NCBI GenBank assembly: GCA_016187945.1
Contig: JACPIT010000009.1
Location: 310,001 to 374,000 of the forward strand
Source: Opitutia bacterium
Lineage (GTDB): Bacteria > Verrucomicrobiota > Verrucomicrobiia > Opitutales > Opitutaceae
Reading direction: 5' to 3'
Length of the DNA: 64,000 bases
Shown: positions 1-61,795 of the stretch, in pieces
Position numbering within the stretch: position 1 is the stretch's first letter
Layout: the number at the start of each line of letters is the position of its first letter
Notes under the pieces: model-generated
The model's database searches: none
What the model was told of the DNA's origin: nothing
The model's input: the letters and a program-made list of their open reading frames with translations, nothing else
Position numbers and translations under genes: made by a program

Positions 1-1198
1 ACTGCGCTTCCCACATCTGGTGCTGACCGACGTCGGTGACGACGATCGTCTCGCGGTCCTTCGTGGCGCGCCAAAGGTCGTTGATCACGTGCGCGGCGTA
101 GAGGTGGCCGTTGTCGGGCAATGCCTGGATGTCGCGCACGGCGGAGTCGCCCTTCATCTCGGCGATCTTCGCCCACCACTCGCCGCGGTCGGACGTGCGG
201 ACCTTCGGGAGGATTTCCTCGAGGACTTCGCGGAGATCGCCGATGAGCGGCACGTCGACGTGAACGTTCTTGTTCACCTCGGACGGGTCGATCTCGACGT
301 GGATCTTCTTCGCGTGCGGCGCGTAGGTTTTCAGATTGCCCGTGACGCGGTCGTCGAAGCGCATGCCGAGCGCGATGAGCAAGTCGGCTTGCTGAATGGC
401 CTGGTTGACCCACGCCTCACCGTGCATGCCCATCATGCCGAGATTGAACGGCGACGAGGCGGGCACGACGCCGAGGCCGAGCAGCGTGACGGCGATCGGG
501 ATGCGGGCGGTGTCGGCGAGCTCGAGCACTTGCGCGGTGGCGCCGGAGAGCTTGATGCCCTGGCCGGCGAGGATCACCGGGCGCTTGGCGGAGTTGATCA
601 ACTCGAGCGCGCGCTCGTATTCGGTCGGCATGGCGCGGAGATTCGGGCGGTAGCCGGCGAGCTTCGGCGCGACGGCATCCCAGTCGAACTCGGCCGTCAT
701 CTGCTGCGCGTCCTTCGTGATGTCGACGAGCACCGGGCCCGGGCGACCGCTCTTGGCGATGTAGAACGCCTCGCGGATCACGCGGGCGATGTCGCCGGTT
801 TTCGTCACGAGGTAATTGTGCTTCGTCACGGGCAACGTGACGCCCGTCACGTCGGTTTCCTGAAACGCATCGGTGCCGAGCGCGCGCGAGCCGACCTGGC
901 CGGTGATGCAGACGATCGGGGACGAGTCCATCATCGCGGTGGCGATGCCGGTGACCATGTTGGTGGCGCCGGGGCCGGAGGTCGCGATGGCGACACCGAC
1001 TTTGCCGCTGGCGCGCGCATAGCCGTCGGCCATGTGCGTGGCGCCTTGCTCGTGGCGCGTGAGGACGTGATGGATTTGCGGGTATTTCGTCATCGCGTCG
1101 TACGTCGGGAGGATTGCGCCGCCCGGATAGCCGAACACGACATCGACGCCCTCGCGAAGGAGGCATTCCCAGATGATTTCTGCGCCGGTGAGTTTCAT
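1..1198 (-). CDS. ilvB: Acetolactate synthase large subunit, partial (3' end cut by window edge)
   Basis: Thiamine-diphosphate enzyme that condenses two pyruvates to acetolactate (or pyruvate with 2-ketobutyrate), the first common step of valine, leucine and isoleucine synthesis. I read 399 codons from the ATG at 1198. The N-terminal ThDP-binding domain shows GYPGGA at residues 23-28 and the catalytic glutamate at E50 in RHEQGATHMADGYARASGK. The central domain continues to about residue 390, where the window ends, so the C-terminal ThDP pyrophosphate-binding domain is not visible. It starts 32 nt after the ilvD stop and is very probably co-transcribed with it, under the attenuator at 3000-3161. 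Anabolic, not pyruvate oxidase, is inferred from the ilvD neighbour and the attenuator. A regulatory subunit gene (ilvN) would be expected beyond the window edge. Confidence 0.95.
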   Translation of the reverse strand, partial: MKLTGAEIIWECLLREGVDVVFGYPGGAILPTYDAMTKYPQIHHVLTRHEQGATHMADGYARASGKVGVAIATSGPGATNMVTGIATAMMDSSPIVCITGQVGSRALGTDAFQETDVTGVTLPVTKHNYLVTKTGDIARVIREAFYIAKSGRPGPVLVDITKDAQQMTAEFDWDAVAPKLAGYRPNLRAMPTEYERALELINSAKRPVILAGQGIKLSGATAQVLELADTARIPIAVTLLGLGVVPASSPFNLGMMGMHGEAWVNQAIQQADLLIALGMRFDDRVTGNLKTYAPHAKKIHVEIDPSEVNKNVHVDVPLIGDLREVLEEILPKVRTSDRGEWWAKIAEMKGDSAVRDIQALPDNGHLYAAHVINDLWRATKDRETIVVTDVGQHQMWEAQ

Positions 1199-1230
1199 AG
1201 GTGGAAGTGAGTTGGGGTTGGTGAAACGGT

Positions 1231-2936
1231 TCAGGAAGTCACCGCGCCGAGCGCGGCGGAGGAAACGGTGGCGGCGTATTTCGCCATCACGCCGCGCTGA
1301 TAGCGCGGGACAGGCGGCGTCCAGCCCTGGCGGCGATACGTGAAATCGACCGCGGGGACCTCGACGTGCAATTTGCGCGCGGCGACATCGATCTCGATGA
1401 TGTCGCCCTCGTGCACGAACGCGATCAAGCCGCCCACGAACGCCTCGGGCGCGACGTGGCCAATCGACATGCCGCGCGTGGCGCCGGAGAAGCGTCCGTC
1501 GGTGAGCAACGCCACCGAGTCGGCCAGGCCGGCGCCCGCGAGCGCGGCGGTGACGCCGAGCATCTCGCGCATGCCGGGGCCGCCCTTGGGCCCTTCATAG
1601 CGGATGACGACAACGTCGCCGGCCTTGATTTTTTGCGCGGTGACGGCAGCCATCGCGTCTTCTTCGCAATTGAACACGCGCGCCGGGCCGCGGTGCTTCT
1701 GCACGCTGCTGCCGGCGACTTTGAGCACGCAGCCCTCCTCGGCGAGATTGCCGCGAAGGATGACGAGGCCGCCGTGCGGCTTGAACGGTTTTTCCACCGA
1801 GCGGATCACCAACTGGCCGGGCGTCTCGGGAGCGTTGCGCACTTCCTCGGCGAGCGAGCGGCCGGTGACCGTCGGGCAGCCGCCCGTGAGCAAATTGCCC
1901 TCGAGCAGACGGCGCAACAGGAGCGTGATGCCGCCCGCGGCGTGCATCTCGGTCGCGGTGTAGAGGCCGCCGGGTTTGAGCGTGGCGATCGTCGGCGTCT
2001 GGTCGCTGAGGCGATCGAAGTCCTCGAGCGAGAGCTTCACGCCGACTTCGTGCGCGAGCGCGAGCAGGTGCAACACGGCGTTGGTCGAGCCACCCGACGC
2101 CGCGACGGCGCGAATGGCGTTCTCGAACGCGGGGCGGATGAAGATCTGCGAGGGGCGCAAGTCGCGGCGCACGAGGTCGACCGCGAGTTCGCCGCAACGA
2201 CGCGCGACGTCTTTCTTCGCCGGATCGACGGCCGGGACGCCGTTCGCACCGGCGGGCGAAATGCCGATGGCCTCCATGACGGTCGCCATGGTGTTCGCGG
2301 TGAACTGGCCGCCGCACGAGCCGGCGGTCGGGCACGCGGCGTTTTCGACGCAGTTGAATTCCTTCTCGTCGATCTTGCCGGCGTTGAACGCGCCGACGGC
2401 TTCGAACACGTCCTGCACCGTCAGCGCCTTGCCGTGGTGTTCGCCGTGATTGATCGAGCCGCCGTAGAGGGCGAGGCCGGGGATGTTGACGCGCGCGAGC
2501 GCCATCATGACGCCGGGGTTGGTCTTGTCGCAGCCGGAGAGGCAGACGAGGCCATCGAGGTAATTGCCGCGCGCGACGAGTTCGATGGAGTCGGCGATGA
2601 CTTCGCGCGAGATGAGCGAGGTCTTCATGCCCTCCGTGCCCATCGTGATGCCGTCGGAGATGGAAACGGTGTTGAACTCCATCGGCGTGCCGCCGGCGGC
2701 GCGGACACCGGCCTTCACGGCCTCGGCGAGTTCGCGGAGGTGGTAGTTGCATGGACCAATTTCGGTCCAGGTGTTCGCGATGCCGATGAGCGGCTTCCGG
2801 TCCAGGTGTTCGCGATGCCGATGAGCGGCTTCTTGAGATCCTCATCGGTGAAACCGACCGCCTTGAGCATGGCGCGCGCGGGTGCGCGGCTGACGCCCTC
2901 GGTGATCGCGGCGGAGTTGCGGCGGAGATCGCTCAT
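1231..2936 (-). pseudogene. ilvD: Dihydroxy-acid dehydratase, frameshifted by a 35-bp tandem duplication
   Basis: IlvD dehydrates 2,3-dihydroxy-isovalerate and its isoleucine homologue to the 2-keto acids. The true N-terminus ([14 protein letters not shown]..., from 2936) runs to [10 protein letters not shown] and then hits an exact 35-bp direct tandem repeat (2763-2797 and 2798-2832). Because 35 is not a multiple of 3, the frame is lost and stops at 2715. Removing one copy restores [25 protein letters not shown] and a full-length protein of about 556 residues. The rest of the gene is intact: [26 protein letters not shown] (Fe-S cluster cysteines), ending AALGAVTS. The longest intact frame (from 2718) lacks about 60 N-terminal residues, including the GPCN cysteine. 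Either a real loss-of-function mutation or an assembly/sequencing error; I cannot tell which from sequence alone. Confidence 0.9.
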
Positions 2937-2999
2937 GCGCGGCGAGCCCCCGTGGAAGGGCGGTTGAAGTGGGCGGTGCTGGGGAGTGTTTTCATTCGG

Positions 3000-3035
3000 A
3001 AAAAAGAAAGGCCACCCGGGTTGGGCGGCCTTTTC
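3000..3035 (-). terminator. Rho-independent terminator in the ilv leader
   Basis: Minus-strand RNA AAAGGCCGCCC, a 5-nt loop AACCC, then GGGUGGCCUUU forms an 11-bp stem (one G-U pair), followed directly by CUUUUUU. It sits between the leader peptide stop and the ilvD start, so it must be conditional for ilvD to be expressed. Confidence 0.88.
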
Positions 3036-3059
3036 GTCACTTGGGAGATTTGTCTCTCT

Positions 3060-3161
3060 TTAGTTGTGCGAAAGCCGCCCGGTGGAGGGGGTAAGCAGAA
3101 TGACGACCGCAATAATAAGGGCGGCAATGAAGTGAAGGGGGAGCTTGATGCTCGACGTCAT
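3060..3161 (-). CDS. Branched-chain amino acid leader peptide (attenuator peptide)
   Basis: A 33-codon open frame starts with ATG at 3161 and ends with TAA at 3060-3062. It contains the run ALIIAVVILL and in total seven Leu, five Ile and two Val codons; the regulatory residues cluster at codons 15-23. It lies upstream of ilvD on the same strand and is followed after about 25 nt by a strong intrinsic terminator. This is the expected arrangement of an ilv leader peptide, whose translation senses charged Leu/Ile/Val tRNA. No strong Shine-Dalgarno is visible before its ATG. The function is inferred from composition and position. Confidence 0.85.
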   Translation of the reverse strand: MTSSIKLPLHFIAALIIAVVILLTPSTGRLSHN

Positions 3162-3236
3162 TCGGAAAAAGAGACGGGCAAATTTCTGGGTGTCAGAGGA
3201 GAATCGGTCAACGGCGCTCTTTCTTTATGACAGCAC

Positions 3237-4199
3237 TCATGCCGCGCGCAAAATCAGCATCAGCGAAACGACGCTAACCACCAGCCACAGACTGATTCCC
3301 ATCGCAAACGGCCGCCAGCCGACCGAGCGCAGATTGTCCCGCGAGAGCGAAGCGCCGATCAAAAACAGCGTCACGGCCAGACCAGCCTTGGCGGCGCTGA
3401 CCCAGAATTGATACACTTGGCCGCCCGCCGGAAACGCCGAGGCCACCGCCGACGCAGCGATGAAGAGCAGCACGAACCACGGCACGACCGCCTTCGCCCC
3501 GCGGCGCTTCTCGAACCAAGCTGCGACGGCGACCATCGGCAAAATCCACAGCGCGCGCGCCAACTTCACCGGCACCGCGATCGCGAGCGACGCCGCGGAA
3601 TACTTCGCCGCCGCGCCGACCACCGAACTGGTGTCGTGGATCGCGATCGCCGCCCAGTAACCGAACTGCTCCGGCGTCAGCCCGAGCGCATGACCGATCG
3701 CCGGAAACGCGAACAACGCGACCGCGTTCAGCACGAACACGCACCCGAGCGCGACCGACATCACGCGCGCCTCCGCGCCGAGCACCGGCCCCATCGCCGC
3801 GATCGCGCTGCCGCCGCAAATCGCCGTGCCGGTCGAGATGAGCTGCCCGGTCGTCCGCTCCACCGCGAACCATCGCGCGAGCGCGAGCCCCAGCGCCATC
3901 GTCGCCGCCAGCGTAAGCGCCGTCGTCATCACACCGGTCGATCCGGCTTTCACGACCGCGCTGAACTGGATGCCGAAACCGAGACCGACCACCGAGCCCT
4001 GCAGCAGATACTTCTGCACCTTGGCGGCGCGCTTCGCGTCCGTGTTGCCCACGAACACCGCAAACACCAGCCCCGCAAACAACGCCACCGGCGGCGTGAT
4101 CCACGGCAGCGCACACGCACCGGCGCAGAGCCACAGCGCGGGCGTTTTCCAAGTTGGCGGGACATCGGCCATCGGACACCATTGCCAACTCTTGACCAT
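3237..4199 (-). CDS. YeiH/UPF0324-family inner-membrane protein (putative sulfate exporter family)
   Basis: Polytopic membrane protein of about 320 residues with eight to ten hydrophobic segments, beginning PALWLCAGACALPWITPPVA. The conserved stretches GSVVGLGFGIQ, GTAICGGSAIAA and AIHDTSSVVGAAA are typical of the YeiH/YadS family, annotated as putative sulfate exporters; the substrate is not experimentally clear for most members. Two start codons are possible: ATG at 4199 (GGAG four bases upstream) and ATG at 4172 (no ribosome-binding site seen); I chose 4199. The longer open frame upstream overlaps divergent queA and is unlikely. Only about 36 bp separate it from queA on the other strand, so promoters must be very compact or overlap the coding ends. 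It follows the ilv control region but is transcribed towards it, so it is probably independent. Confidence 0.85.
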   Translation of the reverse strand: MVKSWQWCPMADVPPTWKTPALWLCAGACALPWITPPVALFAGLVFAVFVGNTDAKRAAKVQKYLLQGSVVGLGFGIQFSAVVKAGSTGVMTTALTLAATMALGLALARWFAVERTTGQLISTGTAICGGSAIAAMGPVLGAEARVMSVALGCVFVLNAVALFAFPAIGHALGLTPEQFGYWAAIAIHDTSSVVGAAAKYSAASLAIAVPVKLARALWILPMVAVAAWFEKRRGAKAVVPWFVLLFIAASAVASAFPAGGQVYQFWVSAAKAGLAVTLFLIGASLSRDNLRSVGWRPFAMGISLWLVVSVVSLMLILRAA

Positions 4200-4235
4200 C
4201 GACTCCAGCCGGGAAACAACCGCCGTTCGCCCGAC

Positions 4236-5495
4236 GTGAAAACCGATCTCTTCGACTATCCGCTTCCCGAGCACCTCATCGCGCAAACGCCCGCACAGCA
4301 GCGCGACGCCTCGCGCCTGCTCGTCGTGCACCGCGCCGAGCGGCGGATCGAGCACCGGCATTTCCGCGAGATCGGCGACTACCTCCGCGCGGGCGACACG
4401 CTCTTCCGCAACAACGCCGCCGTCATCCCGGCTCGCCTCCACGCGCGACGTCCGACCGGCGGCGCCGTCGAGTGCCTGCTGCTCCGCCCGGTCGAATTTG
4501 CAGCCGGGACAACCGCCCTCGAAAACCAAAACTCACGCTCCGCCGTTCCGGGCATTCCGGGCAATCCGCATTCCGCATTCCGCATTCCGCAATCCGCCGA
4601 GTGGTGGTGCCTGCTGCGCCCCGGCCGCAAACTTCCGCCCGGTGAAACGTTCGCCCTCGCCGGCCATTTCACCGCCACCGTGCGCGAGAAAAACGCCGAG
4701 GGACTCTTCCGCGTCGCCTTCGCGTGCGAGAGCGCGAGCGACATTCTCGGTGTCGCCAACCGCATCGGCGAAATGCCGCTGCCTCCCTACATCGGCGAGC
4801 GCCACGACGACACCGATCGCGCGCGCGACCGCGAGCGTTACCAAACCGTCTACGCCGACCGCGCGCACCAAGTCGCCGCCGCCGCGCCCACCGCCGGGCT
4901 GCACTTCACGCCGCAACTCCTCGCGCAACTCGCGGGCGCCGGCGTGCGCTTCGCCGACGTGACGCTCCACGTCGGCCTCGGCACGTTTCGCCCGATCGCG
5001 GCCGAGCACGTCGAGGATCACGTGATCCACCGCGAGATTTACGAAGTCCCCGCCGCCACGCAGACCGCGCTCTTCGCGTCAGCGCGCTCCGCTGCGGATG
5101 CGAGCGCCGACACAGCGTCCGCCGCCGCCACGCCGGCGCTGGCGTCCGGGCCCACCTCCGCCTCGGCACGCGCCCCGTCCGCCGCGCGCCGCATCGCCGT
5201 CGGCACGACCTCGCTGCGCACGCTCGAAGATTTCCGCCGCCGCCACACCGCGCCGCTCGGGCGCGACTTTCTCGGTGAAGCGGACATCTTCATTCATCCG
5301 CCGGCGACGTTCGCCGCTGTCGACGCGCTCATCACGAATTTCCACCAGCCCCGCTCCACCCTGCTCTGCCTCGTCGCCGCGTTTCTCGCTCCCGGCAGCA
5401 CCGACGGCGTGGCGTGGTCCCGCGAGATCTACGCCGAAGCCGCCGCGCGCGGCTATCGTTTCCTCAGCTACGGCGACGCGATGCTCATCGTGTAA
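4236..5495 (+). CDS. queA: S-adenosylmethionine:tRNA ribosyltransferase-isomerase
   Basis: QueA moves the ribosyl group of SAM to 7-aminomethyl-7-deazaguanine in tRNA to give epoxyqueuosine. GTG start at 4236 gives MKTDLFDYPLPEHLIAQTP, the usual QueA N-terminus. Other family blocks are GEMPLPPYI, AAPTAGLHFTPQLL, LHVGLGTFRP, IAVGTTSLRTLE and NFHQPRSTLLCLVAAF. The protein has 419 residues, against about 340-360 for the family. Two insertions explain this: residues about 95-121, translated from an iterated attccgc repeat like one found between genes at 31644-31680, and an Ala/Ser/Pro-rich stretch just before IAVGTTS (about residues 285-320). Both keep the frame. No other queuosine gene is adjacent. 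Confidence 0.95.
   Translation: MKTDLFDYPLPEHLIAQTPAQQRDASRLLVVHRAERRIEHRHFREIGDYLRAGDTLFRNNAAVIPARLHARRPTGGAVECLLLRPVEFAAGTTALENQNSRSAVPGIPGNPHSAFRIPQSAEWWCLLRPGRKLPPGETFALAGHFTATVREKNAEGLFRVAFACESASDILGVANRIGEMPLPPYIGERHDDTDRARDRERYQTVYADRAHQVAAAAPTAGLHFTPQLLAQLAGAGVRFADVTLHVGLGTFRPIAAEHVEDHVIHREIYEVPAATQTALFASARSAADASADTASAAATPALASGPTSASARAPSAARRIAVGTTSLRTLEDFRRRHTAPLGRDFLGEADIFIHPPATFAAVDALITNFHQPRSTLLCLVAAFLAPGSTDGVAWSREIYAEAAARGYRFLSYGDAMLIV
4540..4600 (+). repeat. Iterated attccgc repeat inside queA
   Basis: Three to four copies of the unit attccgc/aatccgc follow gttccgggcattccggg. The same motif string occurs outside genes at 31644-31680. Here it is translated in frame as a low-complexity insert of QueA. 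Confidence 0.75.
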
Positions 5496-5546
5496 CCCCG
5501 GCCGCGCGTCCCTTCCCCCCCCTCCGGCGAGAAGCATGAAACAATT

Positions 5547-5607
5547 ATGGCGTATTACGCCATATTCTCTCTGGTGCACCCTAGCTGGCGAATGTGGCGT
5601 ATTACGC
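5547..5607. promoter_or_regulatory. Two operator-like palindromes upstream of the yceI-type gene
   Basis: A perfect 17-bp palindrome ATGGCGTATTACGCCAT lies at 5547-5563. A second, shorter copy with core GCGTATTACGC lies at 5597-5607. The centres are 47 bp apart, and the region starts about 180 bp before the ATG of the YceI gene in an otherwise empty 248-bp gap. The repeated core in a non-coding gap suggests a transcription-factor site; no factor can be named. Confidence 0.45.
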
Positions 5608-5743
5608 ATTTTGCGAATAAAGGGGACGAGCTGCGACAGGCGCGCGGCTGGCTGGCGCGGGCGGAGACGACGGGCCACGGCAAAACTTAGTTGCATCCGC
5701 AACGAACTCAGCTACCGGTCTGCGTCCTCAACCTCCGAACCAA

Positions 5744-6328
5744 ATGAAACGTCTCCTTACCCTCCTCGCTACGCTCGTGCTCGCCGTCGCTGTTCGCGCC
5801 GACGCCGTCACCTACAAGATCGACCCGGTGCACTCCTCGGTCGGCTTCAGCCTGCGGCACCTCGTCTCGAAGTTCTCCGCGACCTTCACCAAGGTCGACG
5901 GCGCCATCACCTTCGACGAAGCCGCGCCCGAAAAGAGCAGTGTCGAAGCCACTGTCGCGATCGGCTCGGTGAACACGGCTAACGAAAAGCGCGAAGGCCA
6001 TCTCAAGAGCCCCGACTTCTTCGACGAGGCCAAGTTCCCGACCGCCACCTTCAAATCCTCGTCCTGGAAGAAGACGGGCGAGAACACCTTCGACGTCGCC
6101 GGCGACCTCACCATCCGGGGCACCACGAAGCCCGTCGTCCTCCAGGTCTCGCTCCTCGGCACCGGCCCGGGCATGGGCGGCGCCACCATCTCCGGCTGGG
6201 AAGCTACGGCCAAAATCAACCGTAACGATTTCGGCGTTTCCTACGGCCCGAAGATGCTCGGCGACGAGGTCACGCTGAACATCTCGATCGAAGCCGGCCA
6301 CAAGCCCGCGGCCGCCGCGAAGAGCTGA
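5744..6328 (+). CDS. YceI-family secreted lipocalin-like protein
   Basis: 194 residues with a clear Sec signal peptide (MKRLLTLLATLVLAVAVRA, cleavage after about residue 19). The mature part matches the YceI fold family: YKIDPVHSSVGFSLRHL at the start, then FDEAKFPTATFKSS, DLTIRGTTKPV and INRNDFGVSYG. Family members are periplasmic eight-stranded lipocalin-like barrels that bind polyprenoid or other amphiphilic ligands; the physiological role is often unknown. It is monocistronic by position, with the palindromes at 5547-5607 in its upstream region. Confidence 0.92.
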   Translation: MKRLLTLLATLVLAVAVRADAVTYKIDPVHSSVGFSLRHLVSKFSATFTKVDGAITFDEAAPEKSSVEATVAIGSVNTANEKREGHLKSPDFFDEAKFPTATFKSSSWKKTGENTFDVAGDLTIRGTTKPVVLQVSLLGTGPGMGGATISGWEATAKINRNDFGVSYGPKMLGDEVTLNISIEAGHKPAAAAKS

Positions 6329-6390
6329 GCGGATAGCCCGCGACCTCCGGGCGCGGGAAGGCCCGTCCTCGGAGAGGCCGGGCCACCGTC

Positions 6391-6410
6391 GGTCACAGAC
6401 CGCCGCTACA
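6391..6410 (+). repeat. Single copy of the GGTCATAGACCGCCGCTACA repeat family
   Basis: ggtcacagaccgccgctaca, one mismatch from the arms found at 50871-50890 and 60937-60956. It lies in the gap after the YceI gene. Confidence 0.7.
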
Positions 6411-6482
6411 GTTTTCCGAAAGTTCGAGGACGGCCGCGAGGCCGTCCTTTCATTTTCTCCACGCCTTGCTACCGTCCGCCGC

Positions 6483-6842
6483 GTGACCGACGACGAGCTG
6501 CAACACCTGATCGAAGACGCCACCTTCGACTACACGATGGGCGACAACGACACCGCGCTGGCCAAGCTCGCGCGCGCCACCGCCGCCGCGCCCGACTCGT
6601 TCGCCGCGTGGCACGCCGCCGCCGAGATCAACTTCAGCCTGCGCCGCTTCGACGACGCCCTCCTCGCCGCCGAACAAGCCCATCGCCTGCGTCCCGACGA
6701 TCTCTTCATCAACACGACGCTCTCGCGCGTCTGGATGGAAAAAGGCGACAAGGCCAAAGCCGAGCACTTCGGCGCGCAGGCGAAGATCGCGAGCTGGAAA
6801 GATCAGCTCAAGAATCCCGACGCGCATCACGGAGCGCTGTAG
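6483..6842 (+). CDS. Small cytoplasmic tetratricopeptide-repeat protein
   Basis: 119 residues from GTG at 6483, with no signal peptide. It has about three TPR-like helical pairs: DYTMGDNDTALAKLARATAA, AAWHAAAEINFSLRRFDDAL and LFINTTLSRVWMEKGDKAKA, ending in a basic tail. TPR proteins act as protein-binding scaffolds; the partner is unknown. It lies alone between the YceI gene and a convergent membrane-protein gene, so context gives no function. Confidence 0.8.
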   Translation: MTDDELQHLIEDATFDYTMGDNDTALAKLARATAAAPDSFAAWHAAAEINFSLRRFDDALLAAEQAHRLRPDDLFINTTLSRVWMEKGDKAKAEHFGAQAKIASWKDQLKNPDAHHGAL

Positions 6843-6880
6843 GCCGGAGTCGCGCGCGCTTCGCGCGTCCCCGCGTCGGC

Positions 6881-8092
6881 TCAAATCCGCCGCTCGATCA
6901 CCGCACCGGTCGCCGTCTCCCTAAACCGCAACGCGCGCCGCGCCGCGTTGTAGCCGTCGAGCACGATGCCGAGATTCGTTTCGACGATATCGCCGAACGT
7001 GAACGCGGTCGCCCCGACGAGCACGCGCGGGTTGTCGCTCAGCCGCGCGCCGCCGATCTTCACCGCGCGCACCCAGCGCGCGAAACGCAAAGTCGGCTTC
7101 GGCGAATCCGCCGGCACGAAAAATTCTCCGTCGGTGCCGAGCAGCGCCGTCACCGCATCGCGCTTCGGCTTCGCCGATGCGTCGGGCGCGGGTTCGGGAG
7201 TCTGCACCACGATCGACGCCGCGGCCGGTTTCGCCGTCGCGTCGACCGCGGCGTTCGGGTCGTCGAGCATCTTTTCGACGAGTTCGTAGGCTGCTTTGTG
7301 TTTTTCGCCGGCGTCCTTGATCGTCGCCTTCGCCTGTTTCAGCGCGGTGAACGGCGTCGCGGCCGACGAAGTCGCCGGCGTGCCCGCCGGCTTCTCCTCC
7401 GTCGCCGTGGCGGCACCGGAAACCGCGGGCGCGAGCGCGGGCGTCGAGGCCTTGGCCTCCTGCATCCGCTGATATTGAAAGTAGCCCGCGACACATCCCG
7501 CGAGCAGGATCAGCGTCGACCAACTCAGCCAGCGCACTCGCGGCGGTTTCTCGGGGTTGAACTCAAACGGCGTCTCGCTCGTCGACGCGAACGGCGCGGT
7601 CGTCCCGCCTTGCGCGAACGGCGGCATCGTCGCCATCGGCGCGGAGGACATCGGCGTGTTCGCCGGCGCAGGCGCGTGCGGCGACGCGCGACCGGACGCG
7701 ATCGCCGGATTCGGCACGACCGCGGGGATGCGGGCGTTCGCCGGCGCGCGCGGCGCGTGTGTCGCGTTCGTCGCGTTCGTCGCGGGCGTCGTCGGCACGA
7801 CGCTGCGCGCCGGCGCGGCCGGTTTTTCCTCGGGCGCACCGCGCGAACGCGCGCGCTTCGGCGGCGGCTCCACGACGCACGAAAACGGAATCTCGGAAAT
7901 CGCCGGTCGCTTTTCCTCCGGCACGAACGGCGTCGCCGTAGCCGACGAAACGAGGCGGTTGATCAGCGGCGGAGGCACCGGCGGCCAACTGCCTCCCGAG
8001 GGTGCCGACACCTCTCCGCTCGAAGCAGGCGATCCGCTCGCTGGCGGAGGTGTTTGATTGGCCGGGGGTTGGCTCACGGCGCGAGACGACAC
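6881..8092 (-). CDS. Uncharacterised proline/alanine-rich single-pass membrane protein
   Basis: 403 residues. Residues 1-185 are a Pro/Ala/Ser-rich, probably disordered cytoplasmic region that includes PFVPEEKRPAISEIPFS. One membrane segment follows at about 190-208 (LSWSTLILLAGCVAGYF). The rest is a low-complexity linker and a C-terminal block of about 100 residues (FFVPADSPKPTLRFARW ... RVLVGATAFTFGDIVE) that looks folded. I recognise no family. It lies convergent to the TPR gene and divergent to accA, with about 105 bp between the starts. Confidence 0.75.
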   Translation of the reverse strand: MSSRAVSQPPANQTPPPASGSPASSGEVSAPSGGSWPPVPPPLINRLVSSATATPFVPEEKRPAISEIPFSCVVEPPPKRARSRGAPEEKPAAPARSVVPTTPATNATNATHAPRAPANARIPAVVPNPAIASGRASPHAPAPANTPMSSAPMATMPPFAQGGTTAPFASTSETPFEFNPEKPPRVRWLSWSTLILLAGCVAGYFQYQRMQEAKASTPALAPAVSGAATATEEKPAGTPATSSAATPFTALKQAKATIKDAGEKHKAAYELVEKMLDDPNAAVDATAKPAAASIVVQTPEPAPDASAKPKRDAVTALLGTDGEFFVPADSPKPTLRFARWVRAVKIGGARLSDNPRVLVGATAFTFGDIVETNLGIVLDGYNAARRALRFRETATGAVIERRI

Positions 8093-9224: not shown

Positions 9225-9364
9225 TTTCCCGATTGCGCCTACTCGAAGTCGCCGCCGCCGGTGGACGCAGACCCACACCTCGATCGCCTATCCGCTCACG
9301 TTCCTCCGCTGAAGATTTTTTGTGCGCGGTTTTTCCGCCCGACGGCGGTAAGAAGAAAACCAGC

Positions 9365-10792
9365 ATGAGCAATGACGCCGAACTCCTCCGACGCTTCGCC
9401 GAAGAGCAGGATCAAGCTGCCTTCGCCACGCTGGTGCAGAGACACGTCGACTTCGTCCACGCATCCGCACTTCGGCAATGTCGCGGCAATGCCCACCTCG
9501 CCCAGGAGGTCACGCAGCAAGTCTTCATCGACGTGTCGCGGTGCGCGGCCCGTCTCGGACGTCATCCGGTCTTCATCGCGTGGTTGCACGCCGCAACCCG
9601 CTTCGCTGTCATGAACCTTCTTCGATCCGAAGCGCGACGTCTCGCCCGCGAAACGCGCGCCGCTCGCGAGGAATCGTCGCTCCGCGACGACACATCGCTC
9701 GACTGGGAAAATCTGCGCCCGGTGCTCGATGAGGTGCTCGGCGAACTCAAAGACCGAGAGCGTTCCGCGGTGTTGCTGCGGTTCTTCGAAGCAAAGTCAT
9801 TGGCGGAGGTGGGCGCCGCGCTTCAGCTCAGCGAGACGGCGGCTCGTTCGTGCGTCGATCGAGCGCTGGACAAGATGCGCGTGCTCCTCGCCCGACGCGG
9901 ACTGACTTCGACCAGCGCAGCCCTCGGTGTGGCGCTGACCAGTCAGCCGCTTTCCGCGGCCCCGTCGGGCCTCGCCGCAGCGATCACTCACATGGCGCTG
10001 GGGCAGTCCGCCGGAGCCGCCTCCGCTGCCTCTCTTCTCCTCATGAAAAAGATCATCCTGGTTACGGCTGGCACTCTCCTGGTTGCCGAGCTGGCCGTAT
10101 CGGTCGGCGAGTTGCGTGCCCAACAGCAGTTGCGAACGGAACTGCGTCAGATCGCCACCGCACGCCCGTCCTCATCCAACATTGCGACCGCGCCCACACC
10201 AGAAGCGTCCGTCCGCGTCGCAGCACCATCGCCCAGCAGCGCCACGACCGCCGAGCTGCTCCAGTTGCAACAGCGCATCGCCGAGTTGAAGGCGCGCCCG
10301 GCCGGCGTCGCGTCCTCGTCCCTTCGAGGCCCGGACAATCTTGGTCGCGCCACGCCCGAAGCGGCGATGAGCACGCTCGCGTGGGCCACACGCACGGGCG
10401 ACGTCGACGCCCTCGCACGCTTCATCGCCTTCTCCGACGATACGCCGGCCAACCGCACCGCGTTCATGGGAAACTTCAGCGAAGCCGTCCGCGCCCGTTA
10501 TGCGACGCCCGAGCAACTTCTGATTGCCGTCAACTTCGCCGAATCGATGCGCGATCCGCCGATCGGACAACAGATCACGAAATCGCAAGGTTACGCGTCC
10601 GGCGTGCACATGGTCTCGGCGTGGACGCGCTACGCTTCCGGCCGCGAGGCGGTCAGCGCGTTGCCGTTTCAAGAATCCGCAGAAGGCTGGACGCTCACGC
10701 CGGTCGCCCTCGTCGGCGACAAAGCTCCGATCGCGTGGCTCCGCTCGCGGCTCGATCCCGCGACCGGCAGCATTCTGCCGCCCAAAAAATAA
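9365..10792 (+). CDS. ECF-type sigma-70 factor fused to a membrane-anchored C-terminal domain
   Basis: 475 residues from ATG at 9365. Residues about 10-80 are sigma region 2 (FATLVQRHVDFVHASALRQC, EEVTQQVFIDVSR-like block), and 115-180 are region 4 (LDEVLGELKDRERSAVLLRF, LQLSETAARSCVDRALDKMR). After an Ala-rich linker a membrane segment follows at about 225-243 (KKIILVTAGTLLVAELAVSV), then a coiled stretch and a C-terminal domain of about 145 residues (LGRATPEAAMSTLAWATRTG...). Normal ECF factors end after region 4 at about 190 residues. The adjacent gene encodes the same kind of membrane-plus-tail protein without sigma domains. I infer that the tail tethers or senses for the sigma factor, replacing a separate anti-sigma protein. 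Confidence 0.9.
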   Translation: MSNDAELLRRFAEEQDQAAFATLVQRHVDFVHASALRQCRGNAHLAQEVTQQVFIDVSRCAARLGRHPVFIAWLHAATRFAVMNLLRSEARRLARETRAAREESSLRDDTSLDWENLRPVLDEVLGELKDRERSAVLLRFFEAKSLAEVGAALQLSETAARSCVDRALDKMRVLLARRGLTSTSAALGVALTSQPLSAAPSGLAAAITHMALGQSAGAASAASLLLMKKIILVTAGTLLVAELAVSVGELRAQQQLRTELRQIATARPSSSNIATAPTPEASVRVAAPSPSSATTAELLQLQQRIAELKARPAGVASSSLRGPDNLGRATPEAAMSTLAWATRTGDVDALARFIAFSDDTPANRTAFMGNFSEAVRARYATPEQLLIAVNFAESMRDPPIGQQITKSQGYASGVHMVSAWTRYASGREAVSALPFQESAEGWTLTPVALVGDKAPIAWLRSRLDPATGSILPPKK

Positions 10793-60970: not shown

Positions 60971-61795
60971 TCACCCGCGCACGTTGCGGCGGGAGGTGAT
61001 GCGCGAGGCGACGAGGATAGCGATCTCGTAGAGCACGATCAGCGGCAGCGCGAAGAGGCACTGGTTGAACGGGTCCGGCGTCGGAGTGACGATCGCCGCG
61101 ATGATGAACATCACGACGATCGCGTGCCGGCGATATTTGCGCAGCGTCGCTACCTCAATCAGCCCCATGTAGACCGCGAGCACGACGAGCAGCGGGAACT
61201 CGAAGGCCGCGCCCATGCCGAGCACCATCCACATGAGCAGCGAGTAGTATTTGTCCGCCGTCCACATGATCGTGTAGCCGAGCATTTCGTTCAGCTCGAA
61301 GGCCACGCGGATGGTGTTGGGCGTGAGAAAATAGTAGCCGAACGCCGCGCCGCCGAGGAACAGCGCGAACGCCGACAGCCCCGTCGGCACGATCACGCGC
61401 AGCTCTTTTTCGTTCAGCGCGGGCGAGATGAAGCGGCCGAGAAAGTAGATCCAGAACGGCAGCGAAAAGACGATGCCACCGATCAGGCAAATATCGATGA
61501 TGACCGTGAAAACGCCCATCGGGCTGTTCGTCACCAGGTCGGTTTTCATCCGCGGGAAGCTCGCCTTCACCTGCTCGAGCGGCGCGTTCAACAGCGTCGA
61601 GGCGTCGTCGAGCCGGTAGGCGATCACCGTCACGAAAATCGCGAAAACGATCGCGCACTTGATGAGCGTCCAGCGCAGTTCCTCGAGGTGATCGAGGAAT
61701 CCCATCGGCTTCTCGCGCGGGCCCGGCGCCGGTTCCCCGCTGGCCGCGGGCAGGCCTTCGTCGTCGTAGGGGGAATTGGGCGGCGTATCGCTCAA
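60971..61795 (-). CDS. tatC: Twin-arginine translocase subunit TatC
   Basis: 274 residues. A polar N-terminus of about 28 residues is followed by FLDHLEELRWTLIKCAIVFA, the conserved TatC cytoplasmic signature and first helix. Six membrane helices follow, with IYFLGRFISPALNEKELRVI, FALFLGGAAFGYYFLTPNTI, FEFPLLVVLAVYMGLIEVAT and AIVTPTPDPFNQCLFALPLI. TatC recognises twin-arginine signal peptides and exports folded proteins with TatA/B, which are not in this window. It is divergent from ppdK across 284 bp. Confidence 0.95.
   Translation of the reverse strand: MSDTPPNSPYDDEGLPAASGEPAPGPREKPMGFLDHLEELRWTLIKCAIVFAIFVTVIAYRLDDASTLLNAPLEQVKASFPRMKTDLVTNSPMGVFTVIIDICLIGGIVFSLPFWIYFLGRFISPALNEKELRVIVPTGLSAFALFLGGAAFGYYFLTPNTIRVAFELNEMLGYTIMWTADKYYSLLMWMVLGMGAAFEFPLLVVLAVYMGLIEVATLRKYRRHAIVVMFIIAAIVTPTPDPFNQCLFALPLIVLYEIAILVASRITSRRNVRG

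What the first reader, a model, noticed from the sequence alone, without database searches (positions are those of the whole stretch)
3000..3161. Complete ilv attenuator readable from sequence, outside the classical enteric setting
A leader peptide whose core reads ALIIAVVILL is followed by a terminator, and four 7-nt segments (GCCGCCC, GGGCGGC, GCCGCCC, GGGUGGC) are positioned for the classic 1:2, 2:3, 3:4 switch. The control codons sit between segments 1 and 2. Segments 1 and 3 are identical, so the antiterminator and the 1:2 structure compete exactly. Translation-coupled ilv attenuation is known in Gammaproteobacteria and some Actinobacteria; I am not aware of it being described for this lineage, but I cannot search.
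Basis: partly seen in the sequence, partly recalled or inferred. Interest (0 to 1): 0.75.

Follow-up and report, generated by a model that had tools for sequence, protein, structure and literature searches.

The report
Branched-chain amino-acid attenuator in Opitutaceae
Ahead of a valine/isoleucine/leucine operon in a bacterium of the family Opitutaceae sits a tiny leader gene and RNA switch that looks like the textbook amino-acid attenuator and is conserved in the relatives examined that carry the same operon, a known kind of switch in a bacterial group where it seems not to have been described.

Summary
The feature is real. On the minus strand, leader ORF 3161-3060 (MTSSIKLPLHFIAALIIAVVILLTPSTGRLSHN) is followed by an intrinsic terminator (3033-3000), then ilvD (ATG 2936). 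It is the only site in the window with leader, terminator and antiterminator; 20 shuffled windows gave none. Nearest named kin are Opitutaceae, Verrucomicrobiota. Of 252 family genomes, 31 (3 of 49 genera) hold this type of ilvD. All 31 have an Ile/Leu/Val-rich leader and terminator, 30 with an exact antiterminator match; the full set occurs in 0 of 73 outgroup and 0 of 41 other Opitutaceae ilvD loci. ilvD heads an operon ilvD-ilvB-ilvN-ilvC-leuA-cimA-leuB. Leaders prefer Ile ATT (77 of 90) where the operon's genes use it in 4%. Phe/Tyr-rich leaders precede DAHP synthase in about ten genera, and His-run leaders precede hisG in the genus. Best reading: classical ribosome-mediated attenuation, new for this group as far as my searches reach. 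No expression data exist here.

The parts
3225..3232 (-). TGTCATAA box upstream of the promoter-like element; TGTCATA lies within 110 nt upstream of the leader in 21 of 31 relatives; role unknown
   Evidence: coordinates
3207..3211 (-). TTGAC, candidate -35 element, 39-51 nt before the leader ATG in 31 of 31 relatives
   Evidence: that it is a -35 element is inference
3060..3161 (-). leader ORF, 33 aa, MTSSIKLPLHFIAALIIAVVILLTPSTGRLSHN; no Shine-Dalgarno-like motif found before it
3074..3080 (-). segment 2 (GGGCGGC), Gly-Arg codons of the leader; 5' arm of the antiterminator
3023..3033 (-). segment 3 with extension (AAAGGCCGCCC); shared by antiterminator and terminator
3000..3017 (-). segment 4 (GGGTGGCCTTT, 3017-3007) and T-rich tract: 3' half of the intrinsic terminator
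1231..2936 (-). ilvD (dihydroxy-acid dehydratase), first gene of the operon; frame broken in this assembly by a 35-bp tandem duplication at 2763-2832
1..1198 (-). 5' part of ilvB (acetolactate synthase large subunit), next gene of the operon; ilvN, ilvC, leuA, cimA, leuB follow outside the window

Best explanation
A ribosome-mediated transcription attenuator controlling the branched-chain amino-acid operon ilvD-ilvB-ilvN-ilvC-leuA-cimA-leuB. RNA polymerase starts a little upstream of 3161, and a ribosome translates the leader. With charged Ile, Leu and Val tRNAs plentiful, the ribosome reaches the leader's end and covers segment 2, so segment 3 pairs with segment 4 and the terminator stops transcription at about 3000. 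When one of these tRNAs is scarce, the ribosome stalls in the ALIIAVVILL stretch, segment 2 stays free and pairs with segment 3, the terminator cannot form, and the operon is transcribed. Shown here: the parts, their conservation, the mutually exclusive pairings and the operon content. Inferred: transcription start, translation of the leader, stalling, and regulation.
For: 31 of 31 genomes with this ilvD carry leader plus terminator, 30 of 31 also the antiterminator by exact 6-nt match (the exception, L037, keeps GGGCG); full set in 0 of 73 outgroup and 0 of 41 other Opitutaceae ilvD loci. Terminator: 98.7% of cells paired and 11 cells with changes on both sides, neither reached in 500 shuffles; its 2 pairs with such a change are reached in 23 of 500. 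Antiterminator: 98.3% paired. Per genome the region's fold energy is -15.9 to -26.6 kcal/mol for 2:3 and -17.1 to -27.2 for 3:4. The core is rewritten between clades (LIIAVVILL, ALIALITVVLALLA) while staying rich in I/L/V. Seldom-used codons are concentrated: ATT is 77 of 90 Ile codons in the 31 leaders and 4% of 125 in six operon genes of this genome; CTT 71 of 182 Leu codons and 4% of 218. The operon's enzymes belong to Ile, Val and Leu synthesis. A similar design precedes DAHP synthase with Phe/Tyr/Trp codons.
Against: No expression, translation or transcription-start data. The antiterminator helix is almost invariant and shows no pair with changes on both sides, so covariation supports only the terminator. 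The 1:2 helix of the textbook model is not conserved. Val codons in the leaders show no bias to seldom-used ones (GTC 79 of 123, 57% in the operon genes). No ribosome-binding motif is seen before the leader. In Streptomyces, mutating candidate regulatory codons of a similar-looking ilvB leader had no effect on regulation (PMC1262725, passages), and in Corynebacterium a change of one Val codon did not disrupt regulation (PMC10272879, passages), so anatomy alone can mislead. In this assembly ilvD itself is frame-broken.
Confidence: 0.88

Rival explanations
1. The hairpin is only the 3'-end terminator of the upstream co-directional PF03601 gene, and the ORF is incidental.
For: The upstream gene (3237-4529, minus) is co-directional and ends about 75 nt before the leader ATG.
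Against: The main part of that gene is the upstream neighbour in only 5 of 31 relatives (2 more match only its first 100 or so residues), yet leader and terminator are present in all 31. It does not explain the I/L/V conservation, the codon bias, or the complementarity of the terminator arm to the leader's end.
Confidence: 0.03
2. The ORF encodes a small membrane peptide with a function of its own; the terminator sets basal operon expression.
For: The core is hydrophobic and the peptide is conserved.
Against: By eye the hydrophobic run is only about 10-16 residues and its order is rewritten between clades; segment 2 is fixed as nucleotides (GGG in 31 of 31, then CGG in 30 and CGA in 1). Leaders of similar plan before DAHP synthase and hisG are Phe/Tyr- or His-rich.
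Confidence: 0.05
3. A metabolite- or protein-binding leader RNA (riboswitch type) with an accidental ORF.
For: There are local hairpins upstream of segment 2; in the g38 (Lacunisphaera-type) genomes GTCCTGGCC/GGCCACGGAC has three pairs changed on both sides, reached in 1 of 500 shuffles.
Against: No Rfam family reaches its threshold in window 1-8000; the two rows listed up to E 5 are TLS-PK2 elsewhere and Phe_leader here at 23.7 bits against 55. The upstream hairpins differ between clades, whereas I/L/V codons and segments 2-4 are shared.
Confidence: 0.04

Closest known systems
Enterobacterial ilvGMEDA, ilvBN and leu leader-peptide attenuators (recalled, not fetched)
   Same: Leader peptide rich in I/L/V, terminator before the first gene, antiterminator whose 5' arm lies in the distal leader ORF, control of BCAA genes.
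   Different: Other phylum; an operon that starts with ilvD and includes leuA, cimA and leuB; no Rfam leader family above threshold; textbook 1:2 helix not conserved; no ribosome-binding motif seen before the leader.
ilvB leaders of Actinobacteria (ilvB-II of Corynebacterium, PMC10272879; PMC1262725), passages seen
   Same: uORF rich in BCAA codons, with terminator, ahead of a BCAA operon.
   Different: Ahead of ilvB, not ilvD; in those passages single or candidate regulatory codon changes did not abolish regulation, and attenuation is proposed for Corynebacterium but doubted for Streptomyces.
ilvB-OMG motif (PMC10272879, passages)
   Same: uORFs rich in BCAA and Thr codons, 41 representatives from various phyla.
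   Different: Precedes ilvB; no row for it (I did not check whether the Rfam copy holds it).
ilvD motif of Veillonella (PMC8632094, passages)
   Same: Precedes ilvD; some representatives with a possible terminator.
   Different: Only Veillonella; classed there as a weak riboswitch candidate with long stems; no uORF mentioned in the passages seen.
Rfam His_leader (RF00514)
   Same: hisG leaders of the same genus align over the full model, 38.5 and 38.3 bits.
   Different: Below the gathering score of 49; concerns hisG, not this site.

Membership tests
Ribosome-mediated (leader-peptide) transcription attenuator | Short leader ORF with clustered codons for the operon's end products | tested here: met
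   31 of 31 relatives; codon bias for Ile and Leu, not Val
Ribosome-mediated (leader-peptide) transcription attenuator | Intrinsic terminator between leader and first gene | tested here: met
   31 of 31; 11-bp helix, 98.7% of cells paired
Ribosome-mediated (leader-peptide) transcription attenuator | Mutually exclusive antiterminator with its 5' arm in the distal part of the leader ORF | tested here: met
   98.3% of cells paired, energies of similar range; 30 of 31 by exact match; no covariation because nearly invariant
Ribosome-mediated (leader-peptide) transcription attenuator | Segment 1:2 protector or pause helix | tested here: inconclusive
Ribosome-mediated (leader-peptide) transcription attenuator | Operon makes the amino acids of the control codons | tested here: met
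   ilvD-ilvB-ilvN-ilvC-leuA-cimA-leuB
Ribosome-mediated (leader-peptide) transcription attenuator | Stalling at control codons changes read-through | not testable with these tools
   needs an experiment
Rfam Phe_leader (RF01859) | Score at or above gathering | tested here: not met
   23.7 bits against 55
Rfam His_leader (RF00514), for the hisG leader noticed in passing | Score at or above gathering | tested here: not met
   38.5 and 38.3 bits against 49 in 2 of the 4 hisG loci given, no row for the other 2

The most novel reading that the evidence does not exclude
Opitutaceae (Verrucomicrobiota) run a general, perhaps independently evolved system of leader-peptide attenuation: separate leaders for BCAA (ilv-leu operon), aromatic (DAHP synthase) and histidine (hisG) genes. 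The ilv and DAHP-synthase leaders would be translated from very short or absent 5' untranslated regions without a Shine-Dalgarno site (in 21 of 23 DAHP-synthase leaders the ATG or GTG start lies 36-38 nt after TTGAC), and a second small cistron lies between terminator and ilvD.
Probability: 0.5. Interest if true: 0.62.

Novelty: new member of a known kind. Interest (0 to 1): 0.5.

Why it matters
It extends amino-acid attenuation, with comparative support, to Verrucomicrobiota, where my literature searches found no description, and points to it in three pathways of one family. It makes testable whether transcription and translation are coupled closely enough for attenuation in this phylum, and how a ribosome starts a leader ORF that has no visible binding site. 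It also shows turnover: the ilvD attenuator is confined to 3 of 49 genera, those with a distinct type of ilvD.

Tried and rejected
Tried and rejected. (1) Exact 1:2 competition as a conserved feature: not supported. (2) One search counted a structure string that I mistyped; ignored and replaced. (3) Upstream-gene terminator: rejected by changing neighbours. I opened 23 loci of weaker matches (output cut in the middle) and followed those before DAHP synthase. (5) Second small ORF after the terminator: ATG start 4-21 nt after the T-run and stop within -29 to +11 of the ilvD start in 28 of 31, TTG start in 2 more; but codon-position counts show no third-position excess in g1 plus g28 (510/411/460) and a modest one in g38 (1082/1077/1356), so coding function is not shown. 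(6) Tryptophan leader before trpE: none in 11 loci by a run-of-W screen; G000 has no trpE match over the cut-off. (7) Horizontal origin of this ilvD: in a FastTree tree of 139 sequences (midpoint root) the 35 IlvD from attenuated loci (some genomes twice; the window's own and L042 not included) form one clade (support 1.0) that groups with the outgroup set (0.82) apart from all 30 other Opitutaceae IlvD; the outgroup was chosen by similarity to the query, so donor and direction stay open. (8) One DAHP-synthase row (L242) looks like the end of an upstream gene and is left out of my count. (9) A looser screen of the 73 outgroup loci (I/L/V-rich ORF alone, TTG starts allowed) listed such ORFs in 18; (ATG or GTG starts, terminator required) left 1, and none with antiterminator. 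(10) The hisG leaders: my terminator pattern was met in 6 of 11, and no antiterminator match of 6 nt was found by that test.

Full report
Observation. On the minus strand of the window the leader ORF runs from ATG 3161 to the TAA ending at 3060 and encodes MTSSIKLPLHFIAALIIAVVILLTPSTGRLSHN. The terminator lies at 3033-3000 and ilvD starts at 2936. A search of both strands for an I/L/V-rich short ORF, a terminator, and complementarity of the terminator's 5' arm to the ORF end found the full set only here; 60971-61114 was listed without antiterminator. Twenty shuffled windows gave one row without antiterminator and none with it.

Lineage and target. The six closest named records are two Candidatus Didemnitutus, two 'Opitutia bacterium', one Lacunisphaera and one uncultured Verrucomicrobia MAG, with IlvD 79-89% identical; after them identity drops to 63% and below, mostly in Acidobacteriota. 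Both genera are Opitutaceae, Verrucomicrobiota. I call the window's genome Opitutaceae on that ground; its own genus name is not given by the tools. Downstream of ilvD, on the same strand, come ilvB, ilvN, ilvC, leuA, cimA and leuB, each over the cut-off of at least one NCBIfam model of that name. The same order was found by motif in G040 and in the g38 genome G176 (where leuB's frame is open for only 108 codons); in G027 ilvB and leuA were found by motif. The leader's control amino acids are the products of this pathway.

Conservation. Of 252 genomes of the family, 31 hold an IlvD close to that of the window's genus (E <= 1e-200), in 3 of 49 genera. Two genus members lack it (G100, G102; both under 75% complete). 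In all 31 a leader ORF of 32-34 codons carries a Gly-Arg codon pair near its end, which is segment 2. An automatic detector found leader plus terminator in 31 of 31 and an antiterminator match of 6 nt in 30. In 73 outgroup loci it found one leader plus terminator and no full set, and in 41 other Opitutaceae ilvD loci (two genomes counted twice) nothing; 3 of the 73 and 2 of the 41 had less than 420 nt of upstream sequence. The main part of the window's upstream neighbour lies upstream in only 5 of 31, so the leader stays with the operon.

RNA structure (29 distinct of 31 sequences). The terminator helix (11 bp) is paired in 98.7% of cells, with 11 cells of change on both sides; no shuffle of 500 reaches either. 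These fall in 2 pairs, a number reached in 23 of 500 shuffles. The antiterminator (segment 2 with 3, 8 bp) is paired in 98.3% of cells but is nearly invariant, so it carries no covariation. Fold energies are -15.9 to -26.6 kcal/mol for the 2:3 stretch and -17.1 to -27.2 for 3:4; in single genomes they differ by up to about 8 either way. Other upstream hairpins exist: in g38 one inside the control codons with three pairs changed on both sides (reached in 1 of 500 shuffles), in g1 plus g28 GCCGC/GCGGU. These may be pause hairpins; that is inference.

Codons. In six operon genes of this genome ATT makes up 4% of 125 Ile codons and CTT 4% of 218 Leu codons, but ATT is 77 of 90 Ile codons and CTT 71 of 182 Leu codons in the 31 leaders. 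Val shows no such bias (GTC 79 of 123 against 57%). Seldom-used codons fit slow, starvation-sensitive translation; selection against stable RNA structure is an alternative.

Start of the leader. A TTGAC motif lies 39-51 nt before the leader ATG in 31 of 31, and none of four Shine-Dalgarno-like words is seen. If TTGAC is the -35 element, the 5' untranslated region is very short. In 21 of 23 DAHP-synthase leaders an ATG or GTG start lies 36-38 nt after TTGAC; L255 has 41 and L276 none in range. Such a fixed distance would fit nearly leaderless mRNAs. This is inference without mapped transcripts.

Similar design elsewhere. The covariance model of the ilvD leader picked up a second attenuator in the same genome (44.2 bits) ahead of a 3-deoxy-7-phosphoheptulonate (DAHP) synthase, with leader MLQSFAYFFFAFAGFFAPRTMGG (the enzyme's NCBIfam matches are strong, best E 1.1e-82, but below their curated cut-offs). 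Of 70 DAHP-synthase loci examined (of 102 matched genomes; L230 had only 84 nt upstream), 24 rows have an F/Y/W-rich ORF plus terminator. I discard L242, leaving 23 in 10 of 42 genera; 19 also have the antiterminator (9 genera). Seven hundred shuffled upstream regions gave 2 and 0. A stricter version found 9 of 70, with 0 of 1400 shuffles. Ahead of hisG, all 11 genus loci found have a short ORF with a His run (10 with at least 4 His in 10 residues; L348 reads PHHHP). My terminator pattern was met in 6 of these 11 and no 6-nt antiterminator match was found, but 2 of 4 loci given to Rfam align to His_leader, below its threshold. So the his case rests on His runs and that resemblance. trpE showed none in 11 loci.

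Literature. [quoted passage not shown] it adds one in Firmicutes, and the word Verrucomicrobia does not occur in its main text. PMC10272879 (passages) reports BCAA-rich uORFs in the ilvB-OMG motif from various phyla. Searches joining Verrucomicrobia or Opitutus terms with leader-peptide or attenuation terms gave three papers, which I judged off-topic from their listings only. For DAHP synthase with leader peptide and attenuation I saw only a listing of ten papers. The library holds open-licence PMC papers only, so absence from print is not established.

Verdict. The mechanism is classical; the phylum, the whole-operon target and the parallel leaders are the new part. Regulation itself has not been shown.

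Noticed in passing
window 2763-2832: A perfect 35-bp tandem duplication inside the 5' part of ilvD breaks its reading frame in this assembly; ten genus relatives show no such break. Real mutation or assembly error cannot be told apart here.
   Followed up: partly
window 2995-2933, minus strand: Second small ORF ([20 protein letters not shown]) starts right after the terminator and its stop overlaps the ilvD start; a similarly placed small ORF occurs in 30 of 31 relatives (28 ATG, 2 TTG). Possible translational coupling; coding constraint not shown.
   Followed up: partly
L208 (own genome C1:104404-104523, minus): Phe/Tyr-rich leader and terminator ahead of a DAHP synthase gene, similar design, found in 23 of 70 loci in 10 of 42 genera.
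   Followed up: yes
L355 (own genome C9, upstream of hisG 289014-289583): Leader MIRNHHHHHAS with His_leader-like folding (38.5 bits, threshold 49) ahead of hisG; a His-run ORF is seen in 11 of 11 genus hisG loci.
   Followed up: partly
window 3225-3232 and relatives: TGTCATAA box roughly 20-30 nt upstream of the TTGAC element; TGTCATA present in 21 of 31 relatives, doubled in L038. Possible regulator site.
   Followed up: no
L158-L177, between terminator and ilvD: In many g38 (Lacunisphaera-type) genomes a short hairpin (such as CTGCCGAAA..TTTCGGCAG) precedes ilvD within the second small ORF, seen by eye with varying stems, not counted.
   Followed up: no
L331 (G176), leuB near 9318-10393 of the reverse strand: leuB of this single-contig genome has an open frame of only 108 codons, and leuB-like residues continue in another frame.
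   Followed up: no
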